Of a stretch of DNA of 64,000 bases, positions 1-45,453 are shown one piece after another. The notes under the pieces were generated by a model. The model had not been told where the DNA came from, did not search any database, and worked only from the letters and a program-made list of their open reading frames with translations. The stretch covers positions 62,001-126,000 of the forward strand of contig MABD01000011.1 in assembly GCA_002162955.1 (NCBI GenBank), read 5' to 3'. Within the stretch, counting starts at the first letter, position 1, and every line of letters begins with the position of its first letter. The stretch comes from Gammaproteobacteria bacterium 45_16_T64 (GTDB taxonomy: Bacteria > Pseudomonadota > Gammaproteobacteria > Pseudomonadales > Ketobacteraceae). A program made the position numbers and the translations under genes.

Positions 1-3000
1 CTGCGTTTTAGTGCACCTGAGGGTGCGTTTACTCCAGAAATCAAAAATCAAATTGTGTCGAACAAACCGGCCATTATGGAGTTTCTGAAACAGGCCCAGA
101 AGGCGACGGCGGAAACGATTCCCTGTGTAAGTCGGGATAAGCCTTTACGGGCATCCTACGGCCAGCAGCGGTTATGGTTACTCGACCAGCTGAACCCAGG
201 CGATGTGACTTATAACATGCCCACAGCGCTTCGAATTAAGGGTTTTATTGACCCAAATATTTTGGACCAGGCCTTTCAAGCGATTGTTGCACGACATGAG
301 GTATTGCGGACCCACTTTGAAGAGAAGGATGGTGAACCATACCAGGTTATTCGTTCGGATAATGCCTGGACACTCGATCGGTTGGATGTGTCTGATCTTG
401 AGTCTCAAGATAAAGAAACACAAATACAGCACTGTGTAAATGAAGATGCACTGACATCGTTTGATTTAAGCGCGGGACCTCTATTTCGAGGTAAACTTAT
501 CACCGTTAATACCCCTGAATCGGGCGAACCAGAATTCGTGTTAATTGCTTGCATGCACCACATCATTTCGGATGGTTGGTCGATGGAAGTTTTGGTCAAA
601 GAGATGATGGCTTTCTATATGGCGAAAGCGGCTAATAGCCCGTCAGTATTGCCAGAGCTACCGATTCAATATGCAGATTATTCTGAATGGCAGAGGGGGT
701 ATGTGGAAAGCGATGAACAAAAAGCCCACCTTGATTATTGGATAGGCGCTTTAGAAGGTGCACCGTCCGTCCTTAAACTACCCTCGGATAAACCTCGCTC
801 AGAATTGGTAAGTAACCGAGGAGCAGTGCATAAATTTGATATGCCTGCAGCGCTGTTTGTCCAGGTAGAATCGTTTTGTGATAAGAACAAGCTAACACCC
901 TACATGGTAACGTTAGGGGCGTGGCAATTATTGTTGTCTCGCTTTGTGGGTTCCAATGATGTTGTTGTCGGTGCACCTGTTGCTGGGCGTGATAGAGGGG
1001 AGACGCAAGACCTTATTGGTTTTTTCGTGAACCTGTTAATGTTACGTCTTAAGATAGATAACACTGAGACCAGTGAACAATTTTTTCAGCGCGTAAAAAC
1101 CATGGTGTTGGATGGGTTTAGTCATCAGGACTTACCTATCGATATGCTAATGGAAGCAATGTCGATTGAGCGTCAACCGGGGTATTCCCCACTTGCACAA
1201 GCTGCATTTCAACTGATTAATGTGCAGAGTGATGCTGAGTCTACATCGTTAGGTATGGGCCCACTAGAGGTGTCGGAGATACCATCGGCGAGCGCATCGG
1301 CGAGAATGGAGATGGTATTAGGTGTTGCCCGTTTAGATGCTAGTTACAGCGGTAGTTTGGAATATAATACCGACCTCTTTAGTGAGTCGACCATTGCAAC
1401 GTTGGTAAATCAATATCAGCACCTACTATTAGCACTGACTTCTGATAAGCAATTAACCATAGAGTCGATTCAGCTATTTAGCGATGATGAGTTATTATCT
1501 TCTTTAGGTGTTGATGCAGAAACTCACAGCTTGCTTCCATTGAATACTTATCAGCGGGATTTCTATCTGGCGTATAAAGTTAATCCCGATAGTTTTGAGA
1601 ATTCCTATGGGATCTCTGTGGATATCGAAATGCCGCTGGATGAAGCTACGTTAGCTGAGGCCGTTAAGTGGGTTGCGAAACAACATAGTCTTTTGTTGAG
1701 TTCTTTGATAGAGAGTCACTTACCTGGTACTGATGACGCGTACCTGGTTGTCGAACACAACCGCTCTATTTCACTAAATAGGGTAGAAGTAGAAGGTGAT
1801 TTGGCGAGCAATGCCGATTTGTTGATGCATAAACCTATTGACCTACTGCAAGATTCGTTAATTCGCGCGTATTTACTTTTAAATGCGACTGGTCAGCAAA
1901 AGTTGGTGTTGTGTTATCACCACTTGTTGGTGGATGGGGCATCCGCTTTTTTGCATATGGATGCCATTCTTGACTGTTATGAAACACTAAGAAATGGCGG
2001 GTCGCCATCACCGGTAACATCGTCAGATACTAGCCGCTCTATTGTTGCAAATAGTGATTACCAGCAATGGGACAAACAGAATGTTGATAGCGATGCGGTG
2101 ATCGCTTTTTGGAAAGACACGTTAAAAACAGTGGAGCCGCTGCAGTTTTCGATGCCAGAAACCTACCGTAAACGTGAGAATATTAACGCTTTTAATGATG
2201 AGACGGTATCGCTGACAATAGAAGGTGAGTTATTTTCCAGAGTGCGTGCATACTGCCAGGGACTCAGAATTAGCTTCCCGTTATTTTTTAAAGGTATTTA
2301 CGGCATACTTGTACAGCATTATTGTCGAGCAGAGAATGATTTTCATATAGCGGAATTTAACGGCAATCGACGTAATGCCAGTGACTCTGATTTAGGGTGT
2401 TTCTACCAACAGATTCCAATGGTGTTTCCGAATGCTCTGTTTGCAAACGATGCACAGATCGCCGATTTATTTAAGTACGAAAAAGAGTATCGGGCGAAGA
2501 CTCAAGCCTATCGATCTATTTCACTTAGCGAGCAGGCAAACATATTACCTCAGGCACCTGCGGTATTTATGTATAACTACTATAACTTCGTTCTAACGAG
2601 AAATGTGCAGGGGGCATTGGTGAGTCCTGTGATGTCCACACCAAAAGTTGAACGTGGCGTTCAGTTGATCGTGGGTGAGTTACAAGAATCTATTGACCTT
2701 ACGTTGCGCTATGATTTGGATAGTTTTGTCGATTTATCTCTGTTAGATCGCCTTGTATCAGTCGCACAACAAATTGTTGATGTTGGCGTCAACCAATTTT
2801 CGCAGTTGTCCTATATAACTGACTCTGAACGAGAGGAACTTCAGGTACATGGCAAGCAACTTTCACTTCAGACCAATGCCAGAAGTTTTGCCACCATCGT
2901 AGAGTGGTTTCAATTTCAAACCGCGAAATCCGAAAAATCCATTGCCGTTATTTATGGCGATCTACAGTTAACCTATGGTGAGTTAAACCAAAAATCAAAC

Positions 3001-11193: not shown

Positions 11194-11262
11194 CTGATAA
11201 ACCGCACTGTAGGTTTGAAGTCCATTCGAAACAACATCACGAAAGCATAGAGTTAAGGAGAA

Positions 11263-11299: not shown

Positions 11300-11320
11300 T
11301 AAAGTGAGAATGGATTTGCC

Positions 11321-15800: not shown

Positions 15801-18800
15801 GACCTTTCGAAGAGATAAGTGAGGCATCGCCGGATCGTACTGCGGTTATTTCGGGTTCAACACGCTGGACCTACCGTCAACTGAATGCAACAGCCAACCA
15901 ATTGGCGAATAACCTGCTGGATAATGGCGTTAGTACGGGGCAAGCGATTGCAATATGTGTCTCTCCGTCACCGTGGTGGATTGCTGGTGTGCTGGCTATT
16001 CTGAAGGCTGGCTGTCGATATATTCCGGTTGCAACGGATTATCCTGTAGCGAGAGTTAAAGACATCGTTGAAGATGCAAATGCTGCGGTAGTTCTTGTTG
16101 ATGAGGCTTCAGCGCGTAGCTTTGAAAATGTATTGGGGCAGCAGCGGTTGGTCGTTCTCAATGATGCATTGGTCAATGAATATGCCACGGATACACCAAG
16201 AATTGAAATTCCAGGGTCATCACTGTTATATACAATCTACACGTCGGGTTCTACGGGTAAACCTAAGGGTGCTAGCGTTACTCATCGAAATGCAGAAAAT
16301 CTATTGGCCTGGTATACCGATGAATACCATTTTGGTGTTGATAGTCAGCACTTGGTGATGAGTAGTATTGGTTTTGATTTAACCCAAAAGAATATTTTTG
16401 CGCCCTTACGTACAGGAGGCGCAATTGTTCTGCCGGAGATGGAGGAGTTTGATCCGCAGATCGTGGATAGCGTTATTCAGACCAATAATATTACCCATAT
16501 GAACTGCGCGCCGAGCGCGCTGTACGGTCTGGTGGAAGCCGATGATGTGGATCTTGCGTCATTTAGTACTTTGCAATATGTGTTGTTAGGTGGTGAGGCG
16601 ATACACCTCGGGCGCTTGCGGTCATGGATTGATCGTGATGATTGCCAGAGTAAATTGGTTAATATGTATGGTCCGACAGAGTGTACGGATATTGCAGCGA
16701 GTTACACTATTGACGATATCAAAGCCTATGCAGATACATTGGATGCTTCGCTTGTTGCAGATACCCCTATCGGCGTGCCAAATGCGAATGTCAAACTTCA
16801 TGTTCTTGATCAACATCAGGCTCAAGTTGTGCCTGGCTGTGTGGGTGAATTATGTATCAGCGGCGAAAGTGTTGGCGCCGGTTATCTTAATCGTGACCAA
16901 CTAAATGAAGAATGCTTCTTTGATTATCAGGGGCAGCGTACATATAAAACAGGGGACTTAGTTCGTTATAATGATACGGGTGAACTCGTTTATATTGGGC
17001 GTAAAGATTTCCAAGTGAAACTGCGTGGTTTACGTATTGAATTAGATGAAATTCGTTTTGCCTTAGCCCGTTTAGACGGTGTGCGGGACAGTTTGGCACT
17101 AGTGGATGGTGAGCGCCTGTTAGGTTTTGTCGTAGCTGATGTAGTTGATGACAATTATCGCCCATTGCTAAATGAATATTTGCCGGCGTATATGATTCCG
17201 TCATCCATTACATTGTTAGATGAATGGCCATTAACGCCCAACGGAAAGGTTGATCGAAAGCAATTGTTAACGCTTGCGAGTGAACATCAACTGGATTACG
17301 AGGCACCTGAAACCGAAACTGAAATAAGCTTGGCGGGCATTTGGAGTGAGGTGCTCAATGTTGCGGATGTTAGCTGTAACGCAAACTTTTTTGATTTGGG
17401 AGGGCATTCGCTGTTAGCGACTAAAATCGCATCAAGAGCTTCCCAAGTATTTGAAATACACTTAACCGTAAGAGCGATGTTTGAGTCGCCGACGATAAAA
17501 GCATTGGCCAAACAGATTGATGGCATGCTTGACGGTGGTGAAAAGAAAGAGATCATTCCGGTAGTGTCTCGGGAAAAAGTACAGTCTGGTGAACAGCGAG
17601 TGCCACTCTCTTTTGCCCAGCAACGATTGTGGTTGTTAGATAAAATCGATGGCGGTAGTACTGCCTATAATGTGCCTCTCGCAATGCGGATTAAGGGAGG
17701 CTTAAATGTCGACACCTTAAACGATACGATAAACGCATTATTAGTTCGACATGAAGGTTTACGGACCGTCTTTAGAGAAGATGACAATGGCGCATATCAA
17801 TGGATAGTGGACGCCGACCAATATCAATTACAGCTAATGGCGCTGGATGATATTGATCTTTCCGACGGGGATGCCGTCGATGAAGCTATTCGAAACGTGG
17901 TAGCAAGAGAAATACTGCGTCCATTTGATTTGGAAACGGGGCCGCTAATACGCGCCAGTGCAGTAAAAATCACGGAAAGAGATTACCTGTTAATTATCGT
18001 TGCCCATCATATTGTGACAGATGGGTGGTCAATGAATGTACTCGGGCAAGAGCTAGCGACTATTTATGTCACCTCTTCGATGGGGATTGCAAGTCCGTTA
18101 GAAGCCCCTCAGTTGCACTATCTGGATTATGCTCAATGGCAGAGACATCGTTTGGATGACAGTGCTGTGGCCGAGCATTTATCTTATTGGCAACAAGATC
18201 TGCAAGATCTGCCGAATTTGAATTTGCCTACGGATTTTGTTAGGCCTTCTGTGCAAACCTATGCGGGTGCATCGGTACCTTTCTCCCTTAGTCGAAATAC
18301 CAGAGAGAAATTGGAAGCCATTGCTCATAGTAACGGCGGAACTTTATTTAATGCGCTAATGGCTGCGTTCGGCATATTGCTCAATCGGTATACTGGACAA
18401 ACAGATTTTGCTATTGGCACGCCAGTAGCCGGTCGCGACCATCCTGACTTGGAAAAGTTGGTGGGTTTCTTTGTTAACACCTTAGTTATTCGGTTGCGCT
18501 TGGATGGTGTCGAGCGATTTGACGCCTTAGTGCGCTCAGTAAATCAATCGGTCGTTAACGGTTATGAACATCAAGAGATCCCGTTTGAACAGATCGTAGA
18601 AACTATTTCGCCTTCTAGAGATATGAGTCGTGCGCCGTTATTTCAAGCCATGCTTGTGTATCAAAATATGGGTGTTGATCAGCAGCAAATGAACCAAAAT
18701 GCGGCGCAGGCGGGGGATATTAGTCTTCATCCGGTCGAGTTTGATGTTGAATCCTCCAAATTTGATATCACCATGTCATTGGCTGAGATAGACCCGGCTG

Positions 18801-21800
18801 CGAAATCCGATTTTGGTTTGTCAGGTGTCTTGCAATATAACAAAGATCTATTTGAACGCTCGACTATCGAGAGTATTGCGAGCCATTTTGTTTCCCTATG
18901 TGAGCGATTAGTGGCCGCGCCTGATATGGCGTTATCTGATGTGTCGATGTTGACGGAAGTTGAAATTGATCAGCAATTGGTGCAGTGGAATGACACCACG
19001 GTTGCGTACGATCGGGGGCAATCCGTACAACAATTGTTTATCGAACAAGCTCAAAAAACGCCGGAATATGTCGCCGTAAGCTGTGGTGATGAGCGACAGA
19101 CGTATCAAGATTTGGATAGTGCGAGTAATTTGATAGCGACACACCTGATAAGCTTGGGCGTTAAACCGGGCGATCGAGTCGGTATTTGTTTCGATCGATC
19201 GTTACATATTATGAGTTCTATCATTGGGGTGCTTAAAGCGGGTGCGACCTATGTGCCGCTGGATGCAAGTTATCCGGCTGGGCGTATTCAATATATTGTA
19301 GAAGATGCGGGAATACAGCGTGTACTTACCCGTGAGTCCATTGGTGCAAATTTACCGATCGCTCATTGCACCACCACTAATACGGATGAGGTGTTAGCGG
19401 CCAGCAGGGCCGCGGGTGAGCGTGGTGATGAGCCGGTAAACGTTGAGCCTGATGCAAATCGTTTACTTTATCTCATCTATACCTCTGGATCGACTGGAAG
19501 ACCGAAAGGAACGGGTGCGTATCACTATTCAGAAGTGAATTTGTTACGCTGGTATGGCGAAGAATTCTCGATGGGTGAAAATGATCGAGTGATGTTGATG
19601 AGTGCACTAGGGTTTGATTTAACCCAAAAGAACTTGTTTGCGCCATTAACGCTAGGTGCCTCGTTGGTGATTCCAACGGTACAGGAATACGATCCGGCAC
19701 TGCTCGTTGCAGAGATTGAAAAGCAACAGGTAACCTGGATTAACTGTGCGCCGTCAGCATTCTATGATCTTCAAGAAGATGAATCCAATTGGCCTCGCAT
19801 TGCCACATTGAGGCACGTATTCCTCGGTGGTGAGCCGATTAATCTTATGCGTCTAGATGCGTGGCGCCGTACCGCTAGCTGCCAGTTGATTAATAGCTAT
19901 GGTCCAACAGAATGTACGGATATTGCGGCATTCCATGTGGTAAGTGCGAATGACGGGCTGACTTCAATGTTGCCGATAGGACGTCCGAATCATAATGTTA
20001 GGCTCTATATCTTAGGTGCCAATGATGAGTTGTTACCTATTGGTGCGGTAGGGGAGTTGTGCATTAGTGGGGATTCGGTTGGCCCAGGCTATCTACATAG
20101 CGCTGAACTCACCGATGAGGTGTTTGTCCCTCACCCTTTTGGTAAGCAAGGTGAGAAGCTTTATCGTACGGGTGATCTTGCGCGCTATCGTAAAAATGGT
20201 GATGTCGAATATTTGGGGCGACGTGATCAGCAGATTAAATTACGCGGGTACCGTATTGAGGTCGGCGAAATTCAGGCTGTCATTAATGAGCAACCTCACA
20301 TTGTCGATAGCGTAGTTGCCACCCAGAAAGTGGGGGGGGCGGTAGAGCAGCTTGTTGCTTGGCTGGTGGTAGATGGCCTAGACAGCTTGGATGAATCACA
20401 GCGGCAGGTGTTGCAGGAGAGCTGCAAAACGTCAGTCGCTCAGATGTTGCCATCACATATGGTTCCCTCGGTATGGATGTTAGTGGCTAAATTCCCATTG
20501 ACGCCGAATGGAAAAATAGATCGAAAAGCCTTACCTACGCCTGTGCTAAGCCAGTCAATTGCGATTATTGCACCGAGGAATGAACAAGAGCAAACGCTGG
20601 CGAATATTTGGGGCAGTGTGCTGGGTGCTTCGGATGTTGGAATCAACCAGAATTTCTTTGAGTTGGGTGGTCACTCATTGCTGGCGACCAAAGTGGTTGC
20701 TCGTGTGGTTAAGCAAACCAATGCCAACATTACCGTTCGGTCGCTATTTGAAGCGCCGACCATTGAACAGTTTGCACAAGCGATTGCAAGCGCAGGGTTA
20801 CAGAAAAATAATCAAGAAAGAATTAAACGATTGAACAAAGTAGATGATATCCCCTTATCTTACGGGCAGATGCGTCTATTGCAATTTGATCAAATGAACC
20901 CAGGTTCCAGTGCTAACAACATGCCTATCGCGGTACGTGTAAAAGGCGTGTTTGATGTACGGGTTATGCAGAAAGCATACAAAGAGCTATTGCGTCGACA
21001 TGAATCCTTGCGGACTACGTTTTACGCAACAGATGAAGGTGAATTTCGTCAACGAGTACATGCCAAGCAAGAAAATGTACTGCAAGTTATTTCATTGGCT
21101 GGACAGGATGATGCTGAAGAAAAGGTGTTGGAATTTGTCGCCAACGACCGAGGAACCTGCTTTGACTTAATGAATGGGCCGCTGGTTCGTGGTGCATTAT
21201 TAGTGTTGAACGCGGAAGAGAGTAAAGAAGAATCCGTATTGACCTTTTGTATGCACCATATTATTTCAGATGGTGTCTCGATGTCGGTCTTGTTACGAGA
21301 GATGACCACCATTTATGTGGCATTTGCCCATAAGATGCCATCGCCATTACCGGAATTAGCGTTACAGTATGCTGATTATGCTGAGTGGCAACATAGCCAA
21401 CTTAATGAAGAAGTGATGAGTGAGCAGTTAGATTACTGGGAGTCTCATCTCGCCAATGCACCGACGCTAATCACGCTTCCAACGGATAGGCCACGCCCTA
21501 GCGTTCGTACTACCAATGGTAAATCGTTGAGTCTTACCTTTGCGCCAGATTTTAATCAACGCTTAACTGCGTTCTCTAGAGAGCATGGCGTAACACCCTT
21601 TATGGTGATGCTATTTTCCTGGCAGTTGTTGTTATCAAAATACTCTCAGCAACAGTCTGTGTCTGTGGGTGTGCCGATGGAAGGGCGACCGCAGTCTGAG
21701 CTAGAGAATATCATTGGCTTCTTTATCAATAGCATGATTCTCAATGCCGACTTACCCCCCTATCTATCGCTAAAAGATGGCTTAGAACAGGTACGTAGTT

Positions 21801-24800
21801 CCGTGCTGAATGGTTTCGCGAATGGTGATGTGCCGCTCGATAAAGTCATTGAGCGAATGAATATTAAACATAGCAGTTCTTACACGCCTATCGCTCAAGT
21901 TGCTTTTCAGCTAATGGCTGACGCTGGTTTTAGTACAGAGGAGCAGTCTCTGGCAACCGAGTTTGGTGATTTGTCGGTTGAGGTGGTTCAAACCGGTGGT
22001 GTGTCGGCGAAGTTCGACATGTTGCTGTCGTTGCACCAAACGTCTAGCGGGCTATCCGGTGACTTGGAATTTAATACAGACTTATTTGATGATAGTACGG
22101 TTGAGGAATTAATCTGCTGTTATGTGTTTTTGTCGGAATCATTGGTTGCGAATCCAGAGCAACTCGTCGGCACCGTGTCACTGAGTAGTCACGACGTGTT
22201 GATGAAAACACTGGCGTTGTCTGAATCAGACTATGACGATGCGTGGCCGCTGACGGCGATGCAGCGGGATTTGTATTTTTCCAGCGTTAGCAAACCGCAG
22301 ACACTGGAAAATAGCTTGGGTTATGGTGTTGAATTACATCATAAGCTTGATGTCAAAATTTGGCGGGAAGAGCTTACGCGCTTTACGAATCAGCAGTCTA
22401 TCCTGCGATCAGAAATTGTGAACTGTTCTGCTCCCTTTGCAGATTCAGTGTATTTGGGGATTCGAAAGCCAGGCTCTATCAATATCGATGTTATCGACCT
22501 TTCCAGAGATGATGTTGATAATAAACGACTGCAAAAGCGCATTGAGGATCTCGTACGGCACCCGTATATTTTCGATAATGCAGGCAATAGTGATCTTGTT
22601 ACCTATCATTTGATCAAAGTAGCGGAAGATCATTGGGTAACTGTCATGGCAGCGCATCACTTGGTGTTAGATGGTGTGGGGATTGTTCGTCAATTAGACG
22701 TGGTATTAGAAAATTATCAAAAACGCTGTGCCGATGCCCAAATAGATGAGTTGACTACTGATCCTGATCTGTTTGCTGAACACGTTAGGCATGATCGTCA
22801 GAATGCCGATAGCAAAGCGACCGTTGAGTATTGGGAAAAAGAACTGGCAACGGTTGAACCGCTGGACTACAAAGTTCAGTCACCTATCAATAGGCGTGTG
22901 AGTACCCATCAAACTTTTTCTGCGGAGCATTTGGATCAAATCCGTAAATTCTGCCGAAAAAAGAAAATCACCCCAACGCTGTATTTCAAGTGTCTATATG
23001 GTTTGCTGATTAATCAATATTGTCGAGCGGAAGGGGATTTCGTATTTTCTGAGTTGTATGCGGGTCGACCTAAAGGCCATGCCGAAGGGGTTGGTTGTTA
23101 TTATTTGTTGAATCCTTTCGTATGCAAACTGGACATGTATGAGCCTGGTGCTGAAGTGGATAGTTTGTTTTCGGGGGCTCGAGCCGATCAGAAAGCACGG
23201 CGTGATAAGCTTCAGCTTTCTATCTTGCAGCAATCATTATTGATGCCCCAGGGTCGCCTTGGATTTATGTATAACTACATTCATTTTTACCCAGAACTTA
23301 ACGTGATGGGGGTTGATGAAGAGTTTATCCAATTTACACCCAATGTAGAATCCCATGTTCAGTTGATTGTTAAGATGATTGGTCAAGAACTTCATACCTA
23401 TCTTGATTATCATGGTGCGGATTTTGAAGATAGAGACTTCTTGGTAAGGCTGGAGCACGTGAGCCAGCAAATAGTTGATGGCGTCGATACGATTTCTGAT
23501 ATCTCGCTAGTAACACCCACTGAGATGGAGCAGCTCAAGCAATGGTCTGCGGGTGAAAAACAGGTCATAGGTGAATCGCCGATTCAACAGTTGATCGAGC
23601 AGCAGGTGAAAACCTCACCTGAAGCCATTGCCGTTATCTGCGGTAGCGAGTCGTTGAACTATCAGCAACTTAATGAGAAAGCGAATCAAGTGGCTCACTG
23701 TCTCGCGGATCAAGGCGTTCTACCAGGCCAAACCGTCAGCGTGTTTGTTTCGCGCACTCCTTGGTGGATTGTGTCTGTGCTGGGTGTGATGAAAGCGGGA
23801 TGTAGCTACATTCCGATTGCGGCGGATTATCCAGAAGCGCGTGTGAAAGACATCGTCGACGATGCAGCGTCGGCCGCAGTGCTAGTAGACGGCACGACAA
23901 AAGGTTGTGTGCCTGAAGGTATTGATCAGCAAGCGGTGATCGTGCTGAGTGATGATCAGCTTTCAAGTTATTCTACCCACTCTCTGGCGATAAACACCGC
24001 AGTCGATGATTTGCTTTATACCATTTATACGTCGGGCTCTACGGGTAAACCAAAAGGCGCCAGCGTTACCCATAAAAACGCCGAAAATCTATATGGCTGG
24101 TACACGAAAGCATATGATTTCAATCAGGACGGAAAAACGCTAATTATTAGTAGTCCAGGGTTTGATTTAACTCAGAAGAATATATTTGCCCCTTTACGTA
24201 CCGGTGGTGTTGTTGTGTTACCGGGTGTAGAGAGTTTTGATCCGAAAGCCATTGGTAAGGTTATTGCTGATAACGGTGTTACCCATCTTAATTGCGCACC
24301 CAGTGCCTTATACGGACTGTTAGAAAATGAAGATGTTGATTTAGCCGATCTTAGTTCATTGCGATATGTCTTGCTGGGTGGGGAGTCGATCCAGCTAGAG
24401 CGCCTTGAGTCCTGGGCGCAGAGAGAGGATTGTCAATCACGACTCGTGAATATGTACGGTCCTACTGAGTGTACGGATATTGCGGCGAGTTATACCGTAG
24501 AGAATTTACGTGATTATTTTACTGGGGTCGCTAAGGGCAAATTGTCCAAAATTCTGCCCATTGGTATGCCGAATGCCAACGTTACGTTACACGTCTTGAA
24601 TCAGCATTTGGTTCCGGTCGTTCCTGGCTGTATAGGGGAGTTGTGTATCAGTGGTGACAGTGTGGGGGCGGGGTATGTCAATCGAGAGGAGCTGAACAAA
24701 GAGTCTTTTGTTACCGTTGATGGAGAGCGAACGTATCGTACCGGTGATTTGGTACGGTACGATGATCAAGGGCGCCTGGTGTATGTGGACCGAAAAGATT

Positions 24801-27800
24801 TTCAGACCAAAGTTCGGGGCTATCGCATTGAACTCGGTGAAATTGAAAATGTATTGAATACGGTTACAACAGTTCGTGATGCGGTAGTGATCGTTAGAGA
24901 GGATATGCCTGGAGGCGCAGGGTTGACGGCTTATGTGGATATGCCGGGAATTGATACCGAGGCTCAACCTGATATTGTTCAGGGCTTGCGAGATCGATTA
25001 TTTAAGAATTTACCGGACTATATGGTTCCTGCGTCTATTTCATTGTTAGATGAATTACCGTTAAATCCGTCGGGCAAAGTGGATCGTAAGGCTCTTGCGG
25101 CATTACCGCTTGCGGACCTCGGTGGCGGTGTTGACATTGTTCCTCCACAGACGGAACTACAGGCGCAACTTGTTGATATTTGGCAGACCGTGTTGGGTAT
25201 TGATACCTTAGGTATTAAGCAAGATTTCTTCCAGTTAGGTGGACATTCGTTATTGGCAACCAAAGTCGTATCTCGGGTCGCCAAAATAACCGACGCAACA
25301 GTCTCGGTAAGAACGTTGTTTGAAGCGCCGACAATTGAATTATTTGCAGAGCAAATCACTCTGTTGGATGAAAAGAAATCCCAATTGCCCGCCATTGTTC
25401 GCATTGGATCCACAGAGGGTATTCCTTTGTCATTTGGTCAAAGCCGATTATGGTATTTCGATCAAATGAATCCAGGTTCTAGCGCAAATAACATGCCTTC
25501 CGCTATTCGAATAAAAGGGGCGTTTACTGTTGAGGTATTACAGCACGCGTTTGTGGAGCTGATACGTCGACATGAAACCTTACGCACGACCTTCTATTCA
25601 GATCAAGAGGGTAGACCTCTGCAACGGATATTGCCTGAGAGCGGCAATCAAATTCAAGTAATCTCTTATGTGGGTGATGATGATGCAGAGGCCAATGCAA
25701 TGGCTTTTGCAGCGGGTGATCGAGCAACCGGGTTTGATCTAGAAAACGGGCCATTATTACGGGGTACATTGATACAACTCAATGATGATGAGAATTCAAA
25801 AGAGTCGATTCTAACATTCTGTATGCATCATATCATCAGTGATGGCATGTCGTTGGCGGTTCTATTAAAAGAGCTCACAACACTCTATATGGCGCGATTG
25901 CACAATGTTCCATCGCCGTTACCACCGTTACCATTACAATATGCAGATTTTGCTCAATGGCAACAGACCTATCTTACGGATGATGCGTTAGAAGAGCAGA
26001 TTTCTTACTGGGAAGATCACCTGCGTGATGCACCAGCGCTGCTTGAGTTACCGACTGATCGCCCAAGACCAGCGGTACAAACAACCAATGGTAATATACG
26101 TAACTTACGTTTCTCCAAAGAGTTTGGAGAGCGATTGAATGAGTTCTCCCGTGAAAATGGTCTCACACCTTTTATGGTGATGTTGTTTTCCTGGAAAATG
26201 CTGCTATCTAAATATGCACAACAAGAGTCTATCTCTATTGGTGTACCCACGAGCGGTAGAACGCAGCAAGAGCTTGAGAATATTATAGGGTTCTTTATTA
26301 ACAGCGTGGTGCTAAATACAACATTGCCTGCGAATCTATCGATTGCTGATGGTCTTAAGCGGGTACGTGAAACCGTGTTGGGCGGCTTTACGAATGAAAA
26401 CGTACCGGTGGATATGGTATTTGAACGGCTCGATATAGATCGTAACCCCTCCTATACACCTCTGGTGCAGGTGGCGTTTCAACTCGTGACAAGCGATGGC
26501 TTTTCTCCTGAGCAAGAAGCGTTAGCCGCGCAGTTTGGTGACCTTTCTGTGGAGCCGCTCTCACTGGGTGGTGCATCTGCCAAGTTTGATATGACCATGA
26601 CGTTAACCCAATCAGCCGAAGGGTTATTTGGCGATTTGGAATTTAATACTGATTTATTTGATGAGTCGACTATTGATGCGGTGGTTGAGCATTACCAATA
26701 TCTTTCAGAATCCATTATGGCTGATCCACTTCAGCTTATGGGTAATACCGATCTGTGCAGTAAAAAAGATCTTATTCAAGCAGTAGGCTTGCCTCTGGAG
26801 GAGTATAACGACATTTGGCAGTTATCCGCGATGCAGTACGATATGCTGATGGATAACTTAATGAATCCAACGACATTGCAGAGCAGTCATGGTTGTGCTG
26901 TGCATCTTCATAGTGCTGTGGATAGTGATTTATGGCAGCGCTGTATTCAAGCCTTCTCGGACCAGTCAGGCATATTTCGGGCGAAATTTGTCGCAGCAAA
27001 ATCATCTCATCTTGATATGGGCTATTTTGCTATTCGCAATGAACATTCGGTAAATTATCAACTTATGGATCTGAGCGCTGGTGATTACTCCGACGCTGAT
27101 ATCAAGGCCATAACCGATAAGTTTGTGTATATCCCTTATGATGTGGTCAATGATGAATTGGTTCGTTTCCTTACCATAAAAATTGCAGATGATCATTACG
27201 TTGTGGTGGCGGCAGTTCATCACGCAATTCAAGATGGCGCAGCGCTTCATGTATTTTGGGAGTCGGTGACCGGCGCTTACCAGCAGCAGCTCGATAGTCC
27301 TGGTGCACCGTGGGATTTCCCCGTGGATAATTTCACTGATTTTGTCGCCGAAGATCGCCTGATAATGGATACACCAGAAGTCGTTGATTTTTGGCGTGGC
27401 AAGCTATCGACAGTAGAGCCTTTGGACTTCTCTGTGCCTACGCCAGTCCCAGAACCTGGTGCATATCGAAGTCAAGAATTCTGGCTTGAAGACGATCATT
27501 GGGCTCAGGTCAAAGCCTATTGCCGAAAGAAGCGAATAACACCTGCACTGTATTTCAAAGTGCTTTACGGTTTGGTGATAAATGCCTACTGCCGTCCTGA
27601 TGGGGATTTTTCTATCCAGGAAACGATGGCAGGTCGGACCAAAGATTACTACACAACTCAAGGGTGTTTTATTCAGGAAATTCCCTTCGTATTTAACAAA
27701 GCGGCTTTTGGTGCTTCGAGTAGTATCGTTGATTTATATAAAGACGTCAGGGCATTCCAAAAAGCTATTAAGAACTATCGATTGATATCCATCGGTGAGC

Positions 27801-30736
27801 AGATGGCTCTGTCCCCTCGGGGCCGTGTGAGCTTTATGTACAATTACTATCTGTTCCTCAAAGGAACAGAATTTCTCGGCGAAGAGATTTTTATAGAAGG
27901 CACCCCAAGTGATCCTTCAGGTAATGTGCAGGTTGTAGTGACCGAGGTTCGGGGCAATTTGCGGATTAACCTGTTGTATCACCCTCATGTCTTTGAGGAC
28001 TTTGGTCTAGTTGATCGCATGGTGAGTATTAGTCGGCAATTGGTGATTGACGGTGTTGAAGAACTTGGCCAATTGCAATACGTCACTGATGAGGCAGAAA
28101 TTGCCACGTTAATGGATAAATGGAACGATACCGAAGAGGCATTTGATCTTAGCAAGACGGTTCACACGCGCTTTGAAGAGCAGGTTTTGCAAACACCAGC
28201 GTTGATTGCGGTGGTTGATGATAACGCTGCGTATAGCTATGAGATACTTAACCAACGTGCGAATCAATTGGCTCGTTATCTTGTTGATGTAGGTATTAAT
28301 AGCGGTGACCTCGTTGGTTTATGTGCTGAGCGATCAGCCGATTTCCTTGTCGGTATCTTAGGTGTGATGAAGGCGGGTGGGGCTTATGTGCCCATGGATC
28401 CTAAGTATCCGCAGGAGCGTATTACGTACATGCGTGACAACTCGCAAGTGAGTGTATTGTTGAGTCAACAACACCTAGCCGAAAAGGTAGAAGGAAGTGA
28501 TGCGGCTAATGTTGTTTACCTCGATAGCGATTGGCCGAAGATATCAAATTTCGAAAACACCAATTTATTACTTGATATCCCTTCGACGAATCGGGCGTAT
28601 ATGATCTACACCTCCGGTTCTACCGGCCAACCAAAGGGCGCAATTGTTCGTCACAATGGTGCAGTAAACCATATTGAAGCTGAGCGTAAAGCGCTAGAGT
28701 TTGACAGAAGCTTTAGTTTTCTTCAGACGGCACCTTCCTCTTCTGATATTTCCGTATGGCAGTTCGTTGGTCCGGTAATTTGTGGCGGAAAATCTGTGGT
28801 GCTGGATGAAGTGACCAACGCTCAGAAGATGTTTGAACTGGTGAAAGAACACGATATAGACATTGTGGAGCTGGTTCCTGTGGCGTTGCAGTTGCTAATG
28901 GAATACATCAAACAATTACCCGAAAGCGAACGAGCCTTGCCAGCGTTGCGATGGATGATGGCGACGGGTGAAGCCGTATCAGTCGACTTGGTGAATTCAT
29001 GGTTGGCATTGTACCCTGCGATCCCCGTGGTGAACGCTTACGGTCCGACAGAAGCAGCGGATGATGTTATTCAGTGTGCAATTGACAAGCCTTTACCTGC
29101 TGGGCAGCGGTCTGTGCCTATTGGTAAGCCACTAGCAAATCTTCAAGTATTGATACTGGATGATCATCAGCGTTTGGTACCTGCGGGGATTCCTGGTGAG
29201 ATCTGTATTTCAGGTGTCGGTGTGGGTGAAGGTTATTGGAATAATCCAGAAAAAACCGATGAGGCTTTTGTCGACCATCCAATAGATGCTGACAAAGGTA
29301 AGATTTATCGTACCGGTGATTTAGGGCGCTGGTTGGCAGGTGGTTCGATTGAATATTTAGATCGAGTCGATAATCAGGTGAAAGTACGTGGTTTCAGAAT
29401 TGAGCTTGGCGAAGTGGAAGCGGCGGTGACGGCGCTGAATTCAGTCCGAGAGGCGGCGGTGATTGTTCGTGATGATATGCCTGGCGGAACAGCTTTGGCT
29501 GCTTACGTTGTACCGGCGATCGATGATTTTGATGTGTCTGCCACTCGGGCGCTATTACGTGCCGCGCTGCCGGATTACATGGTGCCAACAGCGTTGGTTG
29601 CGTTAGATACATTACCACTCACTCCTGCAGGTAAAGTTGATAGAAAGTCGTTGCCTAAACCGAAGGCGATGGTATTGGATAGTGGGGAATATGTAGCACC
29701 CCGAACTACACTCGAATCGACCTTGGTTGATATGTGGGAGTCATTACTGCCCGTAGAGCAGGTGGGAGTCACGGATAACTTCTTCGATATTGGCGGGCAC
29801 TCTCTCATTGGTGTGAGATTGATGGCGCGTATTGGCCAGGAGTTTTCTATCTCGTTACAGATAACCGAGCTATTAAACGCCCCTACGATTGAAAAGCTAG
29901 CGGTGGTGATTCAAGAAGAAAATGGTTCTACTGAGTGGACGCCACTCGTGACTTTGAAGCGTGTGACAGAAACAGACGTTGTCAAACCAGCGAGACCGTT
30001 GTTCTTTATTCACCCAGTAGGCGGTGATGTGCTGTGTTATACCGACATTGCCGCCACGTTGCCTGCGAATGTACCGGTTTATGGTTTGCAGTCGCGAGGT
30101 TTTGCATTAGGCATGGATGTCTATGGTTCTATCGATGAAATGGTGGAGGCTTATGCTGGCGCTATATTGAGCGCACAAACCGAAGGGCCTTATCAGATTG
30201 CTGCGCAATCTTTGGGCGGGGTGATTGCATTAAAGGTGGCGGAAGCACTCACTGCTAAGGGCCATAAGGTTGGTCCAATCTTTATGTTTGATACCTACAC
30301 TCCGGAAGTCATGATTAAAGACCAGCCTTCTAATGTAGAAATTATTGAAGCGGCTATTGGGCAACCATTACCCAAAAATGTGAAGCAACTGGTTTCTTCG
30401 GGCGATGATGCGTGGTTGGAGATGATGTATAAAACCGCAAGAGCGGCGAAAATTCTGCAAGAGGACTTCACATTTGAGCAGATACAGTCTGTATATAAAG
30501 TGGCCCTGACAAATCATGAATTGGTTTCGGCGATCGAATTAGGTAATATACACGGCGATGTTTATCACTTTGCCGCGAAAGACCTTAAGACTAATGAAAG
30601 CTCCCAAGACGGTTGGAAAGCCCTTGGTTATGCGTTTACTTATCAGCAATCAGTAGGTGAGCATGAATCTATGATTCGTGGCGATAACGCTGTGGTACTG
30701 GGTCAGAAGATCAAAGAAATTATTGCAAGGGCCTAA
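12842..30736 (+). CDS. Nonribosomal peptide synthetase NRPS-2, four modules plus thioesterase
   Basis: Continues and releases the peptide; 5,964 aa. Residues 1-55 are a TubC-type N-terminal docking domain. Module 1: C (HHIISDG 13466), C* (from 14458, HHLVMDG 14867), A (TSGSTG 16241), PCP (Ser 17408). Module 2: C (HHIVTDG 18005), A (19481), PCP (Ser 20675). Module 3: C (HHIISDG 21254), C* (from 22244, HHLVLDG 22655), A (24029), PCP (Ser 25247). Module 4: C (HHIISDG 25826), C* (from 26816, HHAIQDG 27218), A (28610), PCP (Ser 29801). A type I thioesterase follows from about 29960, with AAQSLGG (nucleophile Ser codon 30209), the first Gly of GxSxG being Ala. Signatures are DLKNLGMDIK, DLKNFGSDIK, DLKNLGMDIK and DIWEMTADDK. 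The last resembles Dab codes I recall from pyoverdine synthetases and fits the Dab aminotransferase next door. Modules 1 and 3 look like recent duplicates. The start is set by TAGGAA upstream of ATG. Confidence 0.97.
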   Translation: MNIVDFLSELRQLDIQISLNGDKLKIKAPQGALTKEIKIQLKDRKDEIIEFFSGAKKQDENRKIRRIENPEEIPLSFGQQRLWFFEQANPGTVANNMSSGIRLKGSLSVEIIQRVFNALSERHESLRTTFYTNEEGVPFQQVNSAEEFDLQQVSIEGSREQQEEKIEALLATETKQAFDIVKGPLVRATLVKVSTESDVQEHVLIIGMHHIISDGFSVGIFMREIAMLYLAFVRNMPSPLPPLEVQYPDFSIWQREFLQGEGLEKQLDYWEEKLTGAPLLSTFPSDLPRPPIQTSNGANQRVEFSGDFGERLSAFATQQELTPFIVLLAAWKMLLFRYSNQQDLCVGIPTSGRNQLSLEPLIGFFVNSMVIRSDIDGQASMQDALESVRHSVVNGLDNGDIPIEMAVERLTLSRNPAYTPLIQVAFQLMVEKGTNQAMDGASAHASDLTVEALKKDSVSAKFDMTLSLTHSDIGVQGALEYNTDLYTPETILRITEQFKQVAEYLLSGDLAMQVGSFSLLSEEQRVSFVLGDQADAYEKVLPLTAMQRDLYLSSLRNAATLENSLGYAVELHHKVNVDIWREELTRFSDSQSIMRADIKSCAAPFADAAYLCIKHSGEIELDIIDLSDVEVTDLQERIDGLVRRPYSFDDQRTSTVVYYHLIKLAEEHWVALLATHHLVMDGIGYAQQLSTVFDNYEKRMIDANCTDLKVNPDLFAEYIEYDREEADKKETVDYWREQLKTVEPVDYKVLKPVDQHFRKSFTLSTDHWDSVRQYCRKNKITPTLYFKTLYGLLISHYCRADSDFVLSEFGAGRPKGHAEAVGCYYILNPFICRQSIYQKGTLVADIFRDARAQQKDRRGKLQVSVLQQSQLMSHGRIGFMYNYVHFYGELTLLGKNEVIQQLIPDAESQVQLVIKVIGADLHLFLDYHGTQFEDQDFLQRMNDISQQIIGGIENLADLSFANDGENTLLQQWSAGEEKDIAERPIQRPFEEISEASPDRTAVISGSTRWTYRQLNATANQLANNLLDNGVSTGQAIAICVSPSPWWIAGVLAILKAGCRYIPVATDYPVARVKDIVEDANAAVVLVDEASARSFENVLGQQRLVVLNDALVNEYATDTPRIEIPGSSLLYTIYTSGSTGKPKGASVTHRNAENLLAWYTDEYHFGVDSQHLVMSSIGFDLTQKNIFAPLRTGGAIVLPEMEEFDPQIVDSVIQTNNITHMNCAPSALYGLVEADDVDLASFSTLQYVLLGGEAIHLGRLRSWIDRDDCQSKLVNMYGPTECTDIAASYTIDDIKAYADTLDASLVADTPIGVPNANVKLHVLDQHQAQVVPGCVGELCISGESVGAGYLNRDQLNEECFFDYQGQRTYKTGDLVRYNDTGELVYIGRKDFQVKLRGLRIELDEIRFALARLDGVRDSLALVDGERLLGFVVADVVDDNYRPLLNEYLPAYMIPSSITLLDEWPLTPNGKVDRKQLLTLASEHQLDYEAPETETEISLAGIWSEVLNVADVSCNANFFDLGGHSLLATKIASRASQVFEIHLTVRAMFESPTIKALAKQIDGMLDGGEKKEIIPVVSREKVQSGEQRVPLSFAQQRLWLLDKIDGGSTAYNVPLAMRIKGGLNVDTLNDTINALLVRHEGLRTVFREDDNGAYQWIVDADQYQLQLMALDDIDLSDGDAVDEAIRNVVAREILRPFDLETGPLIRASAVKITERDYLLIIVAHHIVTDGWSMNVLGQELATIYVTSSMGIASPLEAPQLHYLDYAQWQRHRLDDSAVAEHLSYWQQDLQDLPNLNLPTDFVRPSVQTYAGASVPFSLSRNTREKLEAIAHSNGGTLFNALMAAFGILLNRYTGQTDFAIGTPVAGRDHPDLEKLVGFFVNTLVIRLRLDGVERFDALVRSVNQSVVNGYEHQEIPFEQIVETISPSRDMSRAPLFQAMLVYQNMGVDQQQMNQNAAQAGDISLHPVEFDVESSKFDITMSLAEIDPAAKSDFGLSGVLQYNKDLFERSTIESIASHFVSLCERLVAAPDMALSDVSMLTEVEIDQQLVQWNDTTVAYDRGQSVQQLFIEQAQKTPEYVAVSCGDERQTYQDLDSASNLIATHLISLGVKPGDRVGICFDRSLHIMSSIIGVLKAGATYVPLDASYPAGRIQYIVEDAGIQRVLTRESIGANLPIAHCTTTNTDEVLAASRAAGERGDEPVNVEPDANRLLYLIYTSGSTGRPKGTGAYHYSEVNLLRWYGEEFSMGENDRVMLMSALGFDLTQKNLFAPLTLGASLVIPTVQEYDPALLVAEIEKQQVTWINCAPSAFYDLQEDESNWPRIATLRHVFLGGEPINLMRLDAWRRTASCQLINSYGPTECTDIAAFHVVSANDGLTSMLPIGRPNHNVRLYILGANDELLPIGAVGELCISGDSVGPGYLHSAELTDEVFVPHPFGKQGEKLYRTGDLARYRKNGDVEYLGRRDQQIKLRGYRIEVGEIQAVINEQPHIVDSVVATQKVGGAVEQLVAWLVVDGLDSLDESQRQVLQESCKTSVAQMLPSHMVPSVWMLVAKFPLTPNGKIDRKALPTPVLSQSIAIIAPRNEQEQTLANIWGSVLGASDVGINQNFFELGGHSLLATKVVARVVKQTNANITVRSLFEAPTIEQFAQAIASAGLQKNNQERIKRLNKVDDIPLSYGQMRLLQFDQMNPGSSANNMPIAVRVKGVFDVRVMQKAYKELLRRHESLRTTFYATDEGEFRQRVHAKQENVLQVISLAGQDDAEEKVLEFVANDRGTCFDLMNGPLVRGALLVLNAEESKEESVLTFCMHHIISDGVSMSVLLREMTTIYVAFAHKMPSPLPELALQYADYAEWQHSQLNEEVMSEQLDYWESHLANAPTLITLPTDRPRPSVRTTNGKSLSLTFAPDFNQRLTAFSREHGVTPFMVMLFSWQLLLSKYSQQQSVSVGVPMEGRPQSELENIIGFFINSMILNADLPPYLSLKDGLEQVRSSVLNGFANGDVPLDKVIERMNIKHSSSYTPIAQVAFQLMADAGFSTEEQSLATEFGDLSVEVVQTGGVSAKFDMLLSLHQTSSGLSGDLEFNTDLFDDSTVEELICCYVFLSESLVANPEQLVGTVSLSSHDVLMKTLALSESDYDDAWPLTAMQRDLYFSSVSKPQTLENSLGYGVELHHKLDVKIWREELTRFTNQQSILRSEIVNCSAPFADSVYLGIRKPGSINIDVIDLSRDDVDNKRLQKRIEDLVRHPYIFDNAGNSDLVTYHLIKVAEDHWVTVMAAHHLVLDGVGIVRQLDVVLENYQKRCADAQIDELTTDPDLFAEHVRHDRQNADSKATVEYWEKELATVEPLDYKVQSPINRRVSTHQTFSAEHLDQIRKFCRKKKITPTLYFKCLYGLLINQYCRAEGDFVFSELYAGRPKGHAEGVGCYYLLNPFVCKLDMYEPGAEVDSLFSGARADQKARRDKLQLSILQQSLLMPQGRLGFMYNYIHFYPELNVMGVDEEFIQFTPNVESHVQLIVKMIGQELHTYLDYHGADFEDRDFLVRLEHVSQQIVDGVDTISDISLVTPTEMEQLKQWSAGEKQVIGESPIQQLIEQQVKTSPEAIAVICGSESLNYQQLNEKANQVAHCLADQGVLPGQTVSVFVSRTPWWIVSVLGVMKAGCSYIPIAADYPEARVKDIVDDAASAAVLVDGTTKGCVPEGIDQQAVIVLSDDQLSSYSTHSLAINTAVDDLLYTIYTSGSTGKPKGASVTHKNAENLYGWYTKAYDFNQDGKTLIISSPGFDLTQKNIFAPLRTGGVVVLPGVESFDPKAIGKVIADNGVTHLNCAPSALYGLLENEDVDLADLSSLRYVLLGGESIQLERLESWAQREDCQSRLVNMYGPTECTDIAASYTVENLRDYFTGVAKGKLSKILPIGMPNANVTLHVLNQHLVPVVPGCIGELCISGDSVGAGYVNREELNKESFVTVDGERTYRTGDLVRYDDQGRLVYVDRKDFQTKVRGYRIELGEIENVLNTVTTVRDAVVIVREDMPGGAGLTAYVDMPGIDTEAQPDIVQGLRDRLFKNLPDYMVPASISLLDELPLNPSGKVDRKALAALPLADLGGGVDIVPPQTELQAQLVDIWQTVLGIDTLGIKQDFFQLGGHSLLATKVVSRVAKITDATVSVRTLFEAPTIELFAEQITLLDEKKSQLPAIVRIGSTEGIPLSFGQSRLWYFDQMNPGSSANNMPSAIRIKGAFTVEVLQHAFVELIRRHETLRTTFYSDQEGRPLQRILPESGNQIQVISYVGDDDAEANAMAFAAGDRATGFDLENGPLLRGTLIQLNDDENSKESILTFCMHHIISDGMSLAVLLKELTTLYMARLHNVPSPLPPLPLQYADFAQWQQTYLTDDALEEQISYWEDHLRDAPALLELPTDRPRPAVQTTNGNIRNLRFSKEFGERLNEFSRENGLTPFMVMLFSWKMLLSKYAQQESISIGVPTSGRTQQELENIIGFFINSVVLNTTLPANLSIADGLKRVRETVLGGFTNENVPVDMVFERLDIDRNPSYTPLVQVAFQLVTSDGFSPEQEALAAQFGDLSVEPLSLGGASAKFDMTMTLTQSAEGLFGDLEFNTDLFDESTIDAVVEHYQYLSESIMADPLQLMGNTDLCSKKDLIQAVGLPLEEYNDIWQLSAMQYDMLMDNLMNPTTLQSSHGCAVHLHSAVDSDLWQRCIQAFSDQSGIFRAKFVAAKSSHLDMGYFAIRNEHSVNYQLMDLSAGDYSDADIKAITDKFVYIPYDVVNDELVRFLTIKIADDHYVVVAAVHHAIQDGAALHVFWESVTGAYQQQLDSPGAPWDFPVDNFTDFVAEDRLIMDTPEVVDFWRGKLSTVEPLDFSVPTPVPEPGAYRSQEFWLEDDHWAQVKAYCRKKRITPALYFKVLYGLVINAYCRPDGDFSIQETMAGRTKDYYTTQGCFIQEIPFVFNKAAFGASSSIVDLYKDVRAFQKAIKNYRLISIGEQMALSPRGRVSFMYNYYLFLKGTEFLGEEIFIEGTPSDPSGNVQVVVTEVRGNLRINLLYHPHVFEDFGLVDRMVSISRQLVIDGVEELGQLQYVTDEAEIATLMDKWNDTEEAFDLSKTVHTRFEEQVLQTPALIAVVDDNAAYSYEILNQRANQLARYLVDVGINSGDLVGLCAERSADFLVGILGVMKAGGAYVPMDPKYPQERITYMRDNSQVSVLLSQQHLAEKVEGSDAANVVYLDSDWPKISNFENTNLLLDIPSTNRAYMIYTSGSTGQPKGAIVRHNGAVNHIEAERKALEFDRSFSFLQTAPSSSDISVWQFVGPVICGGKSVVLDEVTNAQKMFELVKEHDIDIVELVPVALQLLMEYIKQLPESERALPALRWMMATGEAVSVDLVNSWLALYPAIPVVNAYGPTEAADDVIQCAIDKPLPAGQRSVPIGKPLANLQVLILDDHQRLVPAGIPGEICISGVGVGEGYWNNPEKTDEAFVDHPIDADKGKIYRTGDLGRWLAGGSIEYLDRVDNQVKVRGFRIELGEVEAAVTALNSVREAAVIVRDDMPGGTALAAYVVPAIDDFDVSATRALLRAALPDYMVPTALVALDTLPLTPAGKVDRKSLPKPKAMVLDSGEYVAPRTTLESTLVDMWESLLPVEQVGVTDNFFDIGGHSLIGVRLMARIGQEFSISLQITELLNAPTIEKLAVVIQEENGSTEWTPLVTLKRVTETDVVKPARPLFFIHPVGGDVLCYTDIAATLPANVPVYGLQSRGFALGMDVYGSIDEMVEAYAGAILSAQTEGPYQIAAQSLGGVIALKVAEALTAKGHKVGPIFMFDTYTPEVMIKDQPSNVEIIEAAIGQPLPKNVKQLVSSGDDAWLEMMYKTARAAKILQEDFTFEQIQSVYKVALTNHELVSAIELGNIHGDVYHFAAKDLKTNESSQDGWKALGYAFTYQQSVGEHESMIRGDNAVVLGQKIKEIIARA

Positions 30737-42942: not shown

Positions 42943-42950
42943 TATTGCCT

Positions 42951-44549: not shown

Positions 44550-44557
44550 GGTGGGCG

Positions 44558-45433: not shown

Positions 45434-45453
45434 TTTCAAAGGTATTGGTTTAG

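What the first reader, a model, noticed from the sequence alone, without database searches (positions are those of the whole stretch)
1531..28130. Four modules with two condensation-type domains in series (C-C*-A-PCP)
In NRPS-1 module 1 and NRPS-2 modules 1, 3 and 4, a second C-superfamily domain (from about 1531, 14458, 22244 and 26816) sits between the ordinary C domain and the A domain. All four C* keep HHxxxDG (HHLLVDG, HHLVMDG, HHLVLDG, HHAIQDG) and share a header of the form PLTAMQRDLY. They form one subtype unlike the C domains in front of them. Accessory C-like 'interface' or X domains are known to recruit tailoring oxygenases, usually with altered motifs. Here the motif is intact, so a second acylation (for example of a side chain) or an enzyme-docking role are both possible.
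Basis: partly seen in the sequence, partly recalled or inferred. Interest (0 to 1): 0.75.

Follow-up and report, generated by a model that had tools for sequence, protein, structure and literature searches.

The report
Second condensation domain, likely side-chain acylation
In a bacterium's peptide-making enzymes, certain modules carry an extra, apparently active joining domain, nearly always where the amino acid has a reactive side chain, which suggests that the domain hangs an extra acyl group on that side chain.

Summary
In detail: four modules are C-C*-A-T at the stated places. Five more lie outside the window: two in the preceding gene, three in a second cluster. C* is a distinct condensation-domain family, seen in 28 of 390 genomes drawn from the order (own included), so not an assembly error. 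The catalytic His is kept in 141 of 143 domains counted, the motif Asp in 143; one copy below my score cut-off has lost it. In 120 C-C*-A modules, 119 adenylation codes fit residues with a side-chain OH or NH2 (homoserine 90, diaminobutyrate 23, Ser 3, Thr, Lys, Orn), against 60 of 111 ordinary modules. Seven interface-type domains, fetched as controls, also precede A domains but go with Asp or His codes, lack HH where readable (5), and in 6 of 7 clusters follow a fused TauD dioxygenase; no TauD was found near C*. A C* sub-clade holds the chain-initiating position. Best reading: C* acylates the side chain of the residue on its own module's carrier. Product and donor are unknown; a deep sister relation to interface domains is not rejected.

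The parts
1..11193 (+). NRPS-1 (the gene starts 70-100 bases left of the window): C-C*-A-T, C-A-T, C-A-T
154..1446 (+). ordinary C domain of NRPS-1 module 1
1537..2829 (+). C* of NRPS-1 module 1 (HHLLVDG)
2995..4524 (+). A domain, code DLKNVGSDVK (homoserine)
12842..30736 (+). NRPS-2: C-C*-A-T, C-A-T, C-C*-A-T, C-C*-A-T, thioesterase
13067..14359 (+). ordinary C domain of NRPS-2 module 1
14465..15736 (+). C* of NRPS-2 module 1 (HHLVMDG)
15893..17413 (+). A domain, code DLKNLGMDIK (homoserine-like)
19124..20680 (+). A domain of NRPS-2 module 2, code DLKNFGSDIK (homoserine-like); no C* in this module
20858..22156 (+). ordinary C domain of NRPS-2 module 3
22247..23524 (+). C* of NRPS-2 module 3 (HHLVLDG), the domain modelled
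23681..25252 (+). A domain, code DLKNLGMDIK (homoserine-like)
25430..26725 (+). ordinary C domain of NRPS-2 module 4
26819..28105 (+). C* of NRPS-2 module 4 (HHAIQDG)
28259..29806 (+). A domain, code DIWEMTADDK (diaminobutyrate; assignment recalled, supported by the next gene)
29900..30736 (+). thioesterase domain of NRPS-2
   Evidence: PF00975, 91 bits
30776..32041 (+). EctB-type diaminobutyrate-2-oxoglutarate transaminase, likely supplies Dab
   Evidence: NF006733 and TIGR02407 over cut-off
33768..34601 (+). stand-alone thioesterase
   Evidence: PF00975

Best explanation
C* is a catalytically competent condensation-type domain set between the ordinary C domain and the A domain. The A domain loads homoserine or diaminobutyrate (rarely Ser, Thr, Lys, Orn) on the carrier. 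C* acylates the side-chain OH or NH2 of that carrier-bound residue, taking the acyl group from a donor in trans (acyl-CoA or acyl-ACP). The ordinary C domain joins the upstream peptide to the alpha-amine, probably after side-chain acylation. The product of this cluster would be a 14-residue lipopeptide with up to six side-chain acyl groups besides its N-terminal one. Shown: architecture, family, conserved His, code association, fold (model). Inferred: seat of C* on the C-A platform (from a model search), acyl transfer, donor in trans, order of events, product.
For: (1) Second His kept in 141 of 143 C* counted, Asp 143, Gly 137. (2) 119 of 120 C-C*-A modules have A codes for a residue with a side-chain nucleophile, against 60 of 111 C-A modules; thinned by A-domain similarity 57 of 58 against 26 of 59. 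Dab codes: 23 with C*, 0 with C alone. On the C* tree the residue label, with the starter position as one state, needs at least nine changes. (3) A C* sub-clade (6 domains) includes, in 5 genomes, the first domain of an NRPS whose partner genes carry the thioesterase or a longer N-terminal segment; this C* should initiate the chain with an acyl group from no upstream carrier. (4) Model pLDDT 95.7 with the condensation fold. (5) The ordinary C before C* has lost GW of HHxxxDGW more often than C domains of homoserine modules without C* (39 of 90 against 5 of 40; thinned 26 of 54 against 4 of 28), as if its acceptor were altered. (6) No TauD near C* clusters, none in 3 of 14 C* genomes.
Against: No product is known and no A domain here was assayed; homoserine codes rest on two papers, the Dab code on recall plus the aminotransferase gene. 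44 of 111 ordinary modules also carry homoserine-type codes, so a nucleophile is not enough. One C* module has a Gly-type code with an intact motif. Three C* lack the catalytic His (two of 143, and a degenerate one in G008 below my cut-off), all at homoserine-coded modules. No dedicated acyl-donor gene was found. A membrane acyltransferase-like gene beside some clusters could itself acylate the product. Rows are related, so p-values overstate. The starter role is read from position only. C* with interface domains as one clade is not rejected.
Confidence: 0.55

Rival explanations
1. C* is a docking platform for a trans-acting tailoring enzyme, as siderophore interface domains are for TauD-type beta-hydroxylases; the conserved motif is then structural or a relic.
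For: Extra C-fold domain directly before A, as in the interface-type domains found here. A tree holding C* and interface domains together is not rejected (p-AU 0.85 and 29 log units better than the free quick tree; p-AU 0.24). C* genomes hold many P450 genes.
Against: Second His 141 of 143 and Asp 143 of 143, while the 5 of 7 interface-type domains whose motif region was readable lack HH. Interface modules carry Asp (6) or His (1) codes, C* modules none. In 6 of 7 interface clusters a TauD domain is fused at the end of the protein before; near C* clusters of 14 genomes none was found, and 3 have none at all. One hydroxylase acting on Hse, Dab, Ser, Thr, Orn and Lys is implausible (inference).
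Confidence: 0.15
2. C* closes a ring on the side chain by cyclodehydration, sharing the work with C as the tandem Cy domains of VibF do: homoserine to a dihydro-oxazine, Dab to a tetrahydropyrimidine, Ser or Thr to an oxazoline.
For: The main substrates have a nucleophile at beta or gamma; division of labour between tandem domains is known for VibF (recalled).
Against: C* has HHxxxDG, not the DxxxxD motif of Cy domains (recalled). Lys and Orn would need 7- or 8-membered rings. Starter C* in five genomes precede aliphatic-coded residues, which cannot cyclise.
Confidence: 0.1
3. C* moves the growing peptide itself onto the side-chain nucleophile (ester or isopeptide bond), so that the backbone runs through gamma-OH or gamma-NH2.
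For: Needs no extra donor. Polymer synthetases of the epsilon-poly-lysine kind, whose membrane part was described as tandem condensation domains, link residues through side-chain amines (PMC10522769, passages). In the best tree C* lies with DCL and dual domains, which take peptidyl donors, but at 95/70 only.
Against: The ordinary C keeps HHxxxD in 130 of 133 tandem modules and would be redundant; C* at the initiating position is not explained.
Confidence: 0.1

Closest known systems
Siderophore interface (I) domains paired with TauD-type beta-hydroxylases (Reitz et al. 2019; not held, recalled; named in passages of PMC12230676 and PMC10212144)
   Same: Extra C-superfamily domain directly before an A domain, behind a C domain.
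   Different: HH lost (5 of 5 readable), Asp or His codes (7 of 7), TauD fused next door (6 of 7). C* keeps the motif, sits at Hse/Dab modules, has no TauD near. Each is its own clade (4 of 7 interface rows used); a deep sister relation is open.
Starter (lipo-initiating) C domains such as RzmA-Cs (PMC7804268, passages read)
   Same: HHxxxDG whose second His works on an acyl donor; one C* sub-clade holds the starter position.
   Different: 16-17% identity to RzmA-Cs chains; most C* are internal, behind another C; a clade with two N-terminal lipopeptide-type C domains neither shown nor rejected.
Epsilon-poly-lysine and delta-poly-ornithine synthetases (PMC10522769, passages read)
   Same: Segments described as tandem condensation domains; bonds made to side-chain amines.
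   Different: Segments of about 180 residues between membrane helices at the C-terminus, making a polymer; C* is a full domain inside a canonical module.
Tandem Cy domains of vibriobactin synthetase VibF (recalled)
   Same: Two C-superfamily domains in series on one module's residue.
   Different: C* has HHxxxDG, not the Cy motif, and follows an ordinary C.
X domain of glycopeptide synthetases (PDB 4tx2, 4tx3)
   Same: Accessory C-fold domain (13-15% identity).
   Different: X recruits P450 in the last module (recalled); C* lies before A in many modules, no P450 in the cluster here.
Ester-forming C-superfamily enzymes SgcC5, FUM14, PapA (recalled)
   Same: Precedent for O-acyl transfer by such a fold.
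   Different: Not a cis domain in tandem with an amide-forming C.

Membership tests
Condensation-domain superfamily, catalytic | HHxxxDG with the second His | tested here: met
   second His 141 of 143, Asp 143, Gly 137, first His 119; one further copy below the cut-off has lost the motif, one is a fragment
Condensation-domain superfamily, catalytic | two-lobed C fold | tested here: met
   model pLDDT 95.7; the 50 listed Foldseek hits are C-superfamily structures or contain them, TMq 0.72-0.83
Siderophore interface domain | extra C-fold domain before the A domain, behind a C | tested here: met
   in 6 of 7 interface clusters a TauD domain and a gene border lie between C and I
Siderophore interface domain | loss of the HHxxxDG motif | tested here: not met
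   kept in C*; HH lost in the 5 of 7 interface-type domains readable
Siderophore interface domain | TauD-type hydroxylase in the cluster | tested here: not met
   14 C* genomes: none in 3; in 10 on other contigs, in G007 about 2 Mb away
Siderophore interface domain | module activates a beta-hydroxylated residue (Asp, His) | tested here: not met
   0 of 120 C* modules; 7 of 7 interface modules (Asp code recalled, His code)
Siderophore interface domain | same clade | tested here: inconclusive
   each its own clade but a tree joining them is not rejected
Starter C domain | N-terminal initiating position | tested here: not met
   the four window C* are internal; 6 relatives are N-terminal
Starter C domain | accepts acyl-CoA or acyl-ACP | not testable with these tools
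   needs an assay
Cyclisation (Cy) domain | DxxxxD in place of HHxxxDG | tested here: not met
   (Cy motif recalled)
DCL or dual C domain | follows an E domain, or epimerises | tested here: not met
   preceded by an ordinary C; epimerisation not testable
X domain | last module, recruits P450 | tested here: not met
   position before A; the P450 listed on contig C58 is 23 kb from the first NRPS gene (list cut)

The most novel reading that the evidence does not exclude
C* is a new class of NRPS domain: an in-line side-chain acyltransferase working in tandem with an ordinary C domain. It would let one assembly line build peptides with many acylated homoserine and diaminobutyrate side chains (up to six per 14-mer here) from acyl-CoA or acyl-ACP.
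Probability: 0.5. Interest if true: 0.85.

Novelty: new variant of a known kind. Interest (0 to 1): 0.72.

Why it matters
It would add a step to NRPS logic, acylation of a side chain by a domain in the assembly line, and give a sequence handle to predict multiply acylated lipopeptides. Extra C-like domains before A have so far been read as enzyme docking sites; here catalysis is the better reading, testable with one excised C*-A-T unit. A recognisable C* family would also keep genome-mining tools from calling such modules erroneous or interface modules.

Tried and rejected
Beta-hydroxylation by a CmlA-type enzyme, suggested by the chitinopeptins (PMC9248904: sections 8 and 9 and passages read): CmlA_N in 0 of 14 C* genomes, but the control did not ring, so absence is not shown. 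P450 docking: P450 genes are numerous; the ones listed lie outside the 14-module clusters, but the list was cut and G175 has one at C56:64934-65500 close to another C* NRPS. A first reading of the quick tree, that C* groups firmly away from interface domains, was withdrawn after the AU tests. Acyl-chain gate residue (RzmA R148 position): as varied in C* as in ordinary C, uninformative. The search for related loci gave one locus, MAG Moraxellaceae bacterium NORP69, whose contig has the length of G004:C190. Plasmid relatives: best identities 26.8% and 27.8%. Paper searches (one search listed 40 of 132, 25 of 26, 8 of 83) showed, by titles and abstract starts, no description of C-C*-A at homoserine modules; subscription papers are mostly not held. 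Not tested: tunnel shape (no coordinates reach the script box), MIBiG, selection.

Rows left out before counts: one search counts 143 of 145 C* hits (dropped: a degenerate copy in G008 and a fragment in G103). One search left 22 of 261 A domains unassigned; three of these follow a C* and carry homoserine-type codes. The model alignment A2 holds 6 own C* plus 73 of 100 thinned ones; neither of the two counted C* without the His is in it. The careful tree has 54 of 96 rows: long or partial rows and 3 of 7 interface domains left out.

Full report
WHERE IT IS. The window is bases 62001-126000 of contig C58 of an unnamed 6.49-Mb genome. A genome of the same genus (G004) has a contig of the same length as one of MAG Moraxellaceae bacterium NORP69. 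The cluster starts left of the window: NA (AMP-binding enzyme plus carrier, read as a fatty acyl-AMP ligase start; then two modules), NB (three), NC (two), a membrane protein, then NRPS-1 (three) and NRPS-2 (four, ending in a thioesterase), 14 modules in all, six with C*. The gene after NRPS-2 is an EctB-type Dab aminotransferase. A second cluster on contig C17 has three NRPS genes with three C-C*-A modules; one of the genes begins with a C* domain.

THE OBSERVATION. Four C* lie at 1537-2829, 14465-15736, 22247-23524 and 26819-28105, each between C and A. Linkers are regular: C to C* 31 residues, C* to A 53, against 69 from C to A in ordinary modules (medians of 134, 128 and 113). A profile of nine own C* finds, in the cut list, full-length relatives down to 162 bits, then nothing until 111 bits. 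At E of 1e-40 or better, 28 of 390 genomes drawn from the order (own included; 11 of 142 genera) and 1 of 398 drawn from the phylum (the own one) have it; at most four candidates a genome were scored there, and very distant copies would be missed.

SUBSTRATES. I joined fetched stretches of 28 genomes into 70 pieces (1.44 Mb) and read nine positions of the Stachelhaus code against GrsA (letters recalled). Of 261 A domains, 120 sit in C-C*-A, 111 in C-A, 6 behind an N-terminal C*, 2 behind a cut C*, 22 unassigned. Codes in C-C*-A: homoserine type 90 (DLKN or DLKS), Dab 23, Ser 3, Thr 1, Lys 1, Orn 1, Gly type 1. In C-A: homoserine 44, Ser 8, Thr 8, aliphatic 22, DPRH type 17, Gly 8, other 4. DLKNVGSDVK and DLKNLGTDVK are reported for Hse/Hsl (PMC12283262, passages), DLKNFGSDVK for Hse in laxaphycins from an antiSMASH 4.1 reading (PMC7524897, passages); the other DLKN variants, and the Ser, Thr, Lys, Orn, Gly and aliphatic groupings, are by likeness and recall. 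The Dab reading of DIWEMTADDK is recalled; Dab aminotransferase genes lie in the clusters of G000, G005, G007 and G011. Nucleophile against not: 119/1 and 60/51; thinned at the strictest level 57/1 and 26/33. The p-values (8e-19; 1e-11) ignore relatedness. On the C* tree of 126 rows the label, starter counted as one state, needs at least nine changes, and Dab C* form two groups, so C* follows the residue of its own module.

CATALYTIC RESIDUES. Of 143 C* counted: second His 141, Asp 143, Gly 137, first His 119. Of the two hits left out, one (G008) has lost the motif and one (G103) is a fragment. In an alignment of 79 chosen C* His138 and Asp142 are the only invariant columns at a mean column identity of 30%. 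Such conservation argues for catalysis; the three domains without the His, all at homoserine-coded modules, would be dead copies.

CONTROLS. In six of seven the protein before ends in C plus a TauD domain (PF02668, 145-169 bits); L168 has no such tail. Separate TauD genes are annotated next to the NRPS genes of L152, L156 and L171. A codes are Asp type in six and His in one. HH is absent in the five whose motif region was readable. So the same method separates the two kinds of extra domain: interface goes with Asp or His and TauD, C* with Hse, Dab, Ser, Thr, Orn, Lys and no TauD.

PHYLOGENY. In the quick tree of 96 rows C* plus starter C* is one clade (100, SH-aLRT) and the seven interface domains another (98). 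In a careful tree of 54 rows (4 interface rows) both are clades at 100/100. C* falls with DCL and dual domains at 95/70, which is not firm. Holding C* and interface domains together is not rejected: p-AU 0.24 on the careful tree; on the quick tree 0.85, with a likelihood 29 units better than the free search had found. C* with two N-terminal lipopeptide-type C domains is not rejected either (p-AU 0.30). So C* is its own family, but its deep origin is open; the starter C* are part of it.

STARTER POSITION. In own C17, G001, G002, G003 and G035 an NRPS of the form C*-A-T-E-C-A-T (cut in G001 and G002) starts with C*; a sixth starter-type C* (G035) is a lone C*-A-T gene. In own C17 one partner gene ends in a thioesterase and both partners begin with a longer N-terminal segment, read by eye as a TubC-type docking domain. 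So only the C* gene can be first, and this C* should put an acyl group on the first residue without any upstream carrier; no fatty acyl-AMP ligase was recognised among the C17 genes that I listed, though not all were scanned. By extension internal C* could use a donor in trans. This is inference from position.

STRUCTURE. The C* model (pLDDT 95.7, pTM 0.92) has the C fold; identities to the 50 listed chains are 13-18%. For a C-C*-A model (pLDDT 89.8, pTM 0.73) the top Foldseek hits are PvdL E-C-A at rmsd above 20 A, that is like order but other arrangement; EntF, SrfA-C and McyA C-A structures align over 731-775 columns at TMq 0.45-0.50 and rmsd 5.6-7.0. Since such an alignment takes in A, it must pair C* with the canonical C; I infer that C* holds the usual C seat and the ordinary C is displaced (ranges are not printed). 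The ordinary C in tandem homoserine modules keeps GW of HHxxxDGW in 51 of 90 cases against 35 of 40 without C* (thinned 28 of 54 against 24 of 28), which fits an acceptor already changed by C*.

PARTNERS. TauD: 11 of 14 C* genomes have one or more; in ten these are on contigs other than those of the C* seen, in G007 (one contig) about 2 Mb away; G005, G011 and G152 have none. CmlA_N: 0 of 14, control silent. A membrane protein of about 600 residues without Pfam match (P0001) has relatives in 24 of 28 C* genomes, in nine of them on a C* NRPS stretch by my reading. A membrane protein with a marginal Acyl_transf_3 match (31.6 bits, cut-off 31) lies next to the second type of cluster (own C17, G001-G003, G035, G075), with a distant copy 4 kb left of NA; 7 of 28 genomes have it. 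It may add acyl groups itself, a caution for the main reading.

VERDICT. The arrangement is real and recurs within one order. The best explanation is in-line side-chain acylation (0.55). By motif, partner and substrate C* is not a siderophore interface domain, although a remote common origin is not excluded. Papers were seen as passages unless stated otherwise; the defining interface paper (Reitz 2019) is recalled.

Noticed in passing
window 11357-12025 (C58:73357-74025): Partial copy, with one stop, of the P0001 membrane-protein family between NRPS-1 and NRPS-2.
   Followed up: no
L010:13788-15680 (C58:59788-61680), left of the window: 630-residue membrane protein without Pfam or NCBIfam match; relatives in 24 of 28 C* genomes, in several beside C* NRPS genes; by eye its motifs resemble GT-C glycosyltransferases.
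   Followed up: partly
window 154-1446, 13067-14359, 20858-22156, 25430-26725 and relatives: Ordinary C domains before C* often lose the GW of HHxxxDGW; 15 of 90 homoserine tandem modules have HHxxxDA against 1 of 40 without C*.
   Followed up: partly
G008:C22 (L073, open frame from 14355): A C* at a homoserine-coded module has lost the HHxxxDG motif and scores 75 bits: a likely dead copy.
   Followed up: partly
window 36522-39875: RND-type pump whose residues 1065-1106 match RMF (ribosome modulation factor, PF04957), just under its cut-off.
   Followed up: no
window 9424-11001: NRPS-1 module 3 A domain has a DPRH-type code (DPRHVGFQAK) and an unusual core FTSGTTGEPKAI; the code type recurs in related clusters.
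   Followed up: no
L013:14105-15271 and L011:17383-18564: Membrane protein with a marginal Acyl_transf_3 match next to the C17 cluster and a distant copy left of the C58 cluster.
   Followed up: partly
window 42945-57395: Tad-type pilus locus (secretin, ATPase with FHA domain, two T2SSF genes, RcpC, TadE) downstream, largely conserved in G007.
   Followed up: no
window 39886-41016 and 41053-42027: MORN-repeat protein (nine matched stretches) beside an oppositely oriented protein kinase gene.
   Followed up: no
L069:14838-16034 (G007): Stand-alone protein with a weak, sub-cut-off condensation-domain match beside the C* cluster, opposite strand.
   Followed up: no
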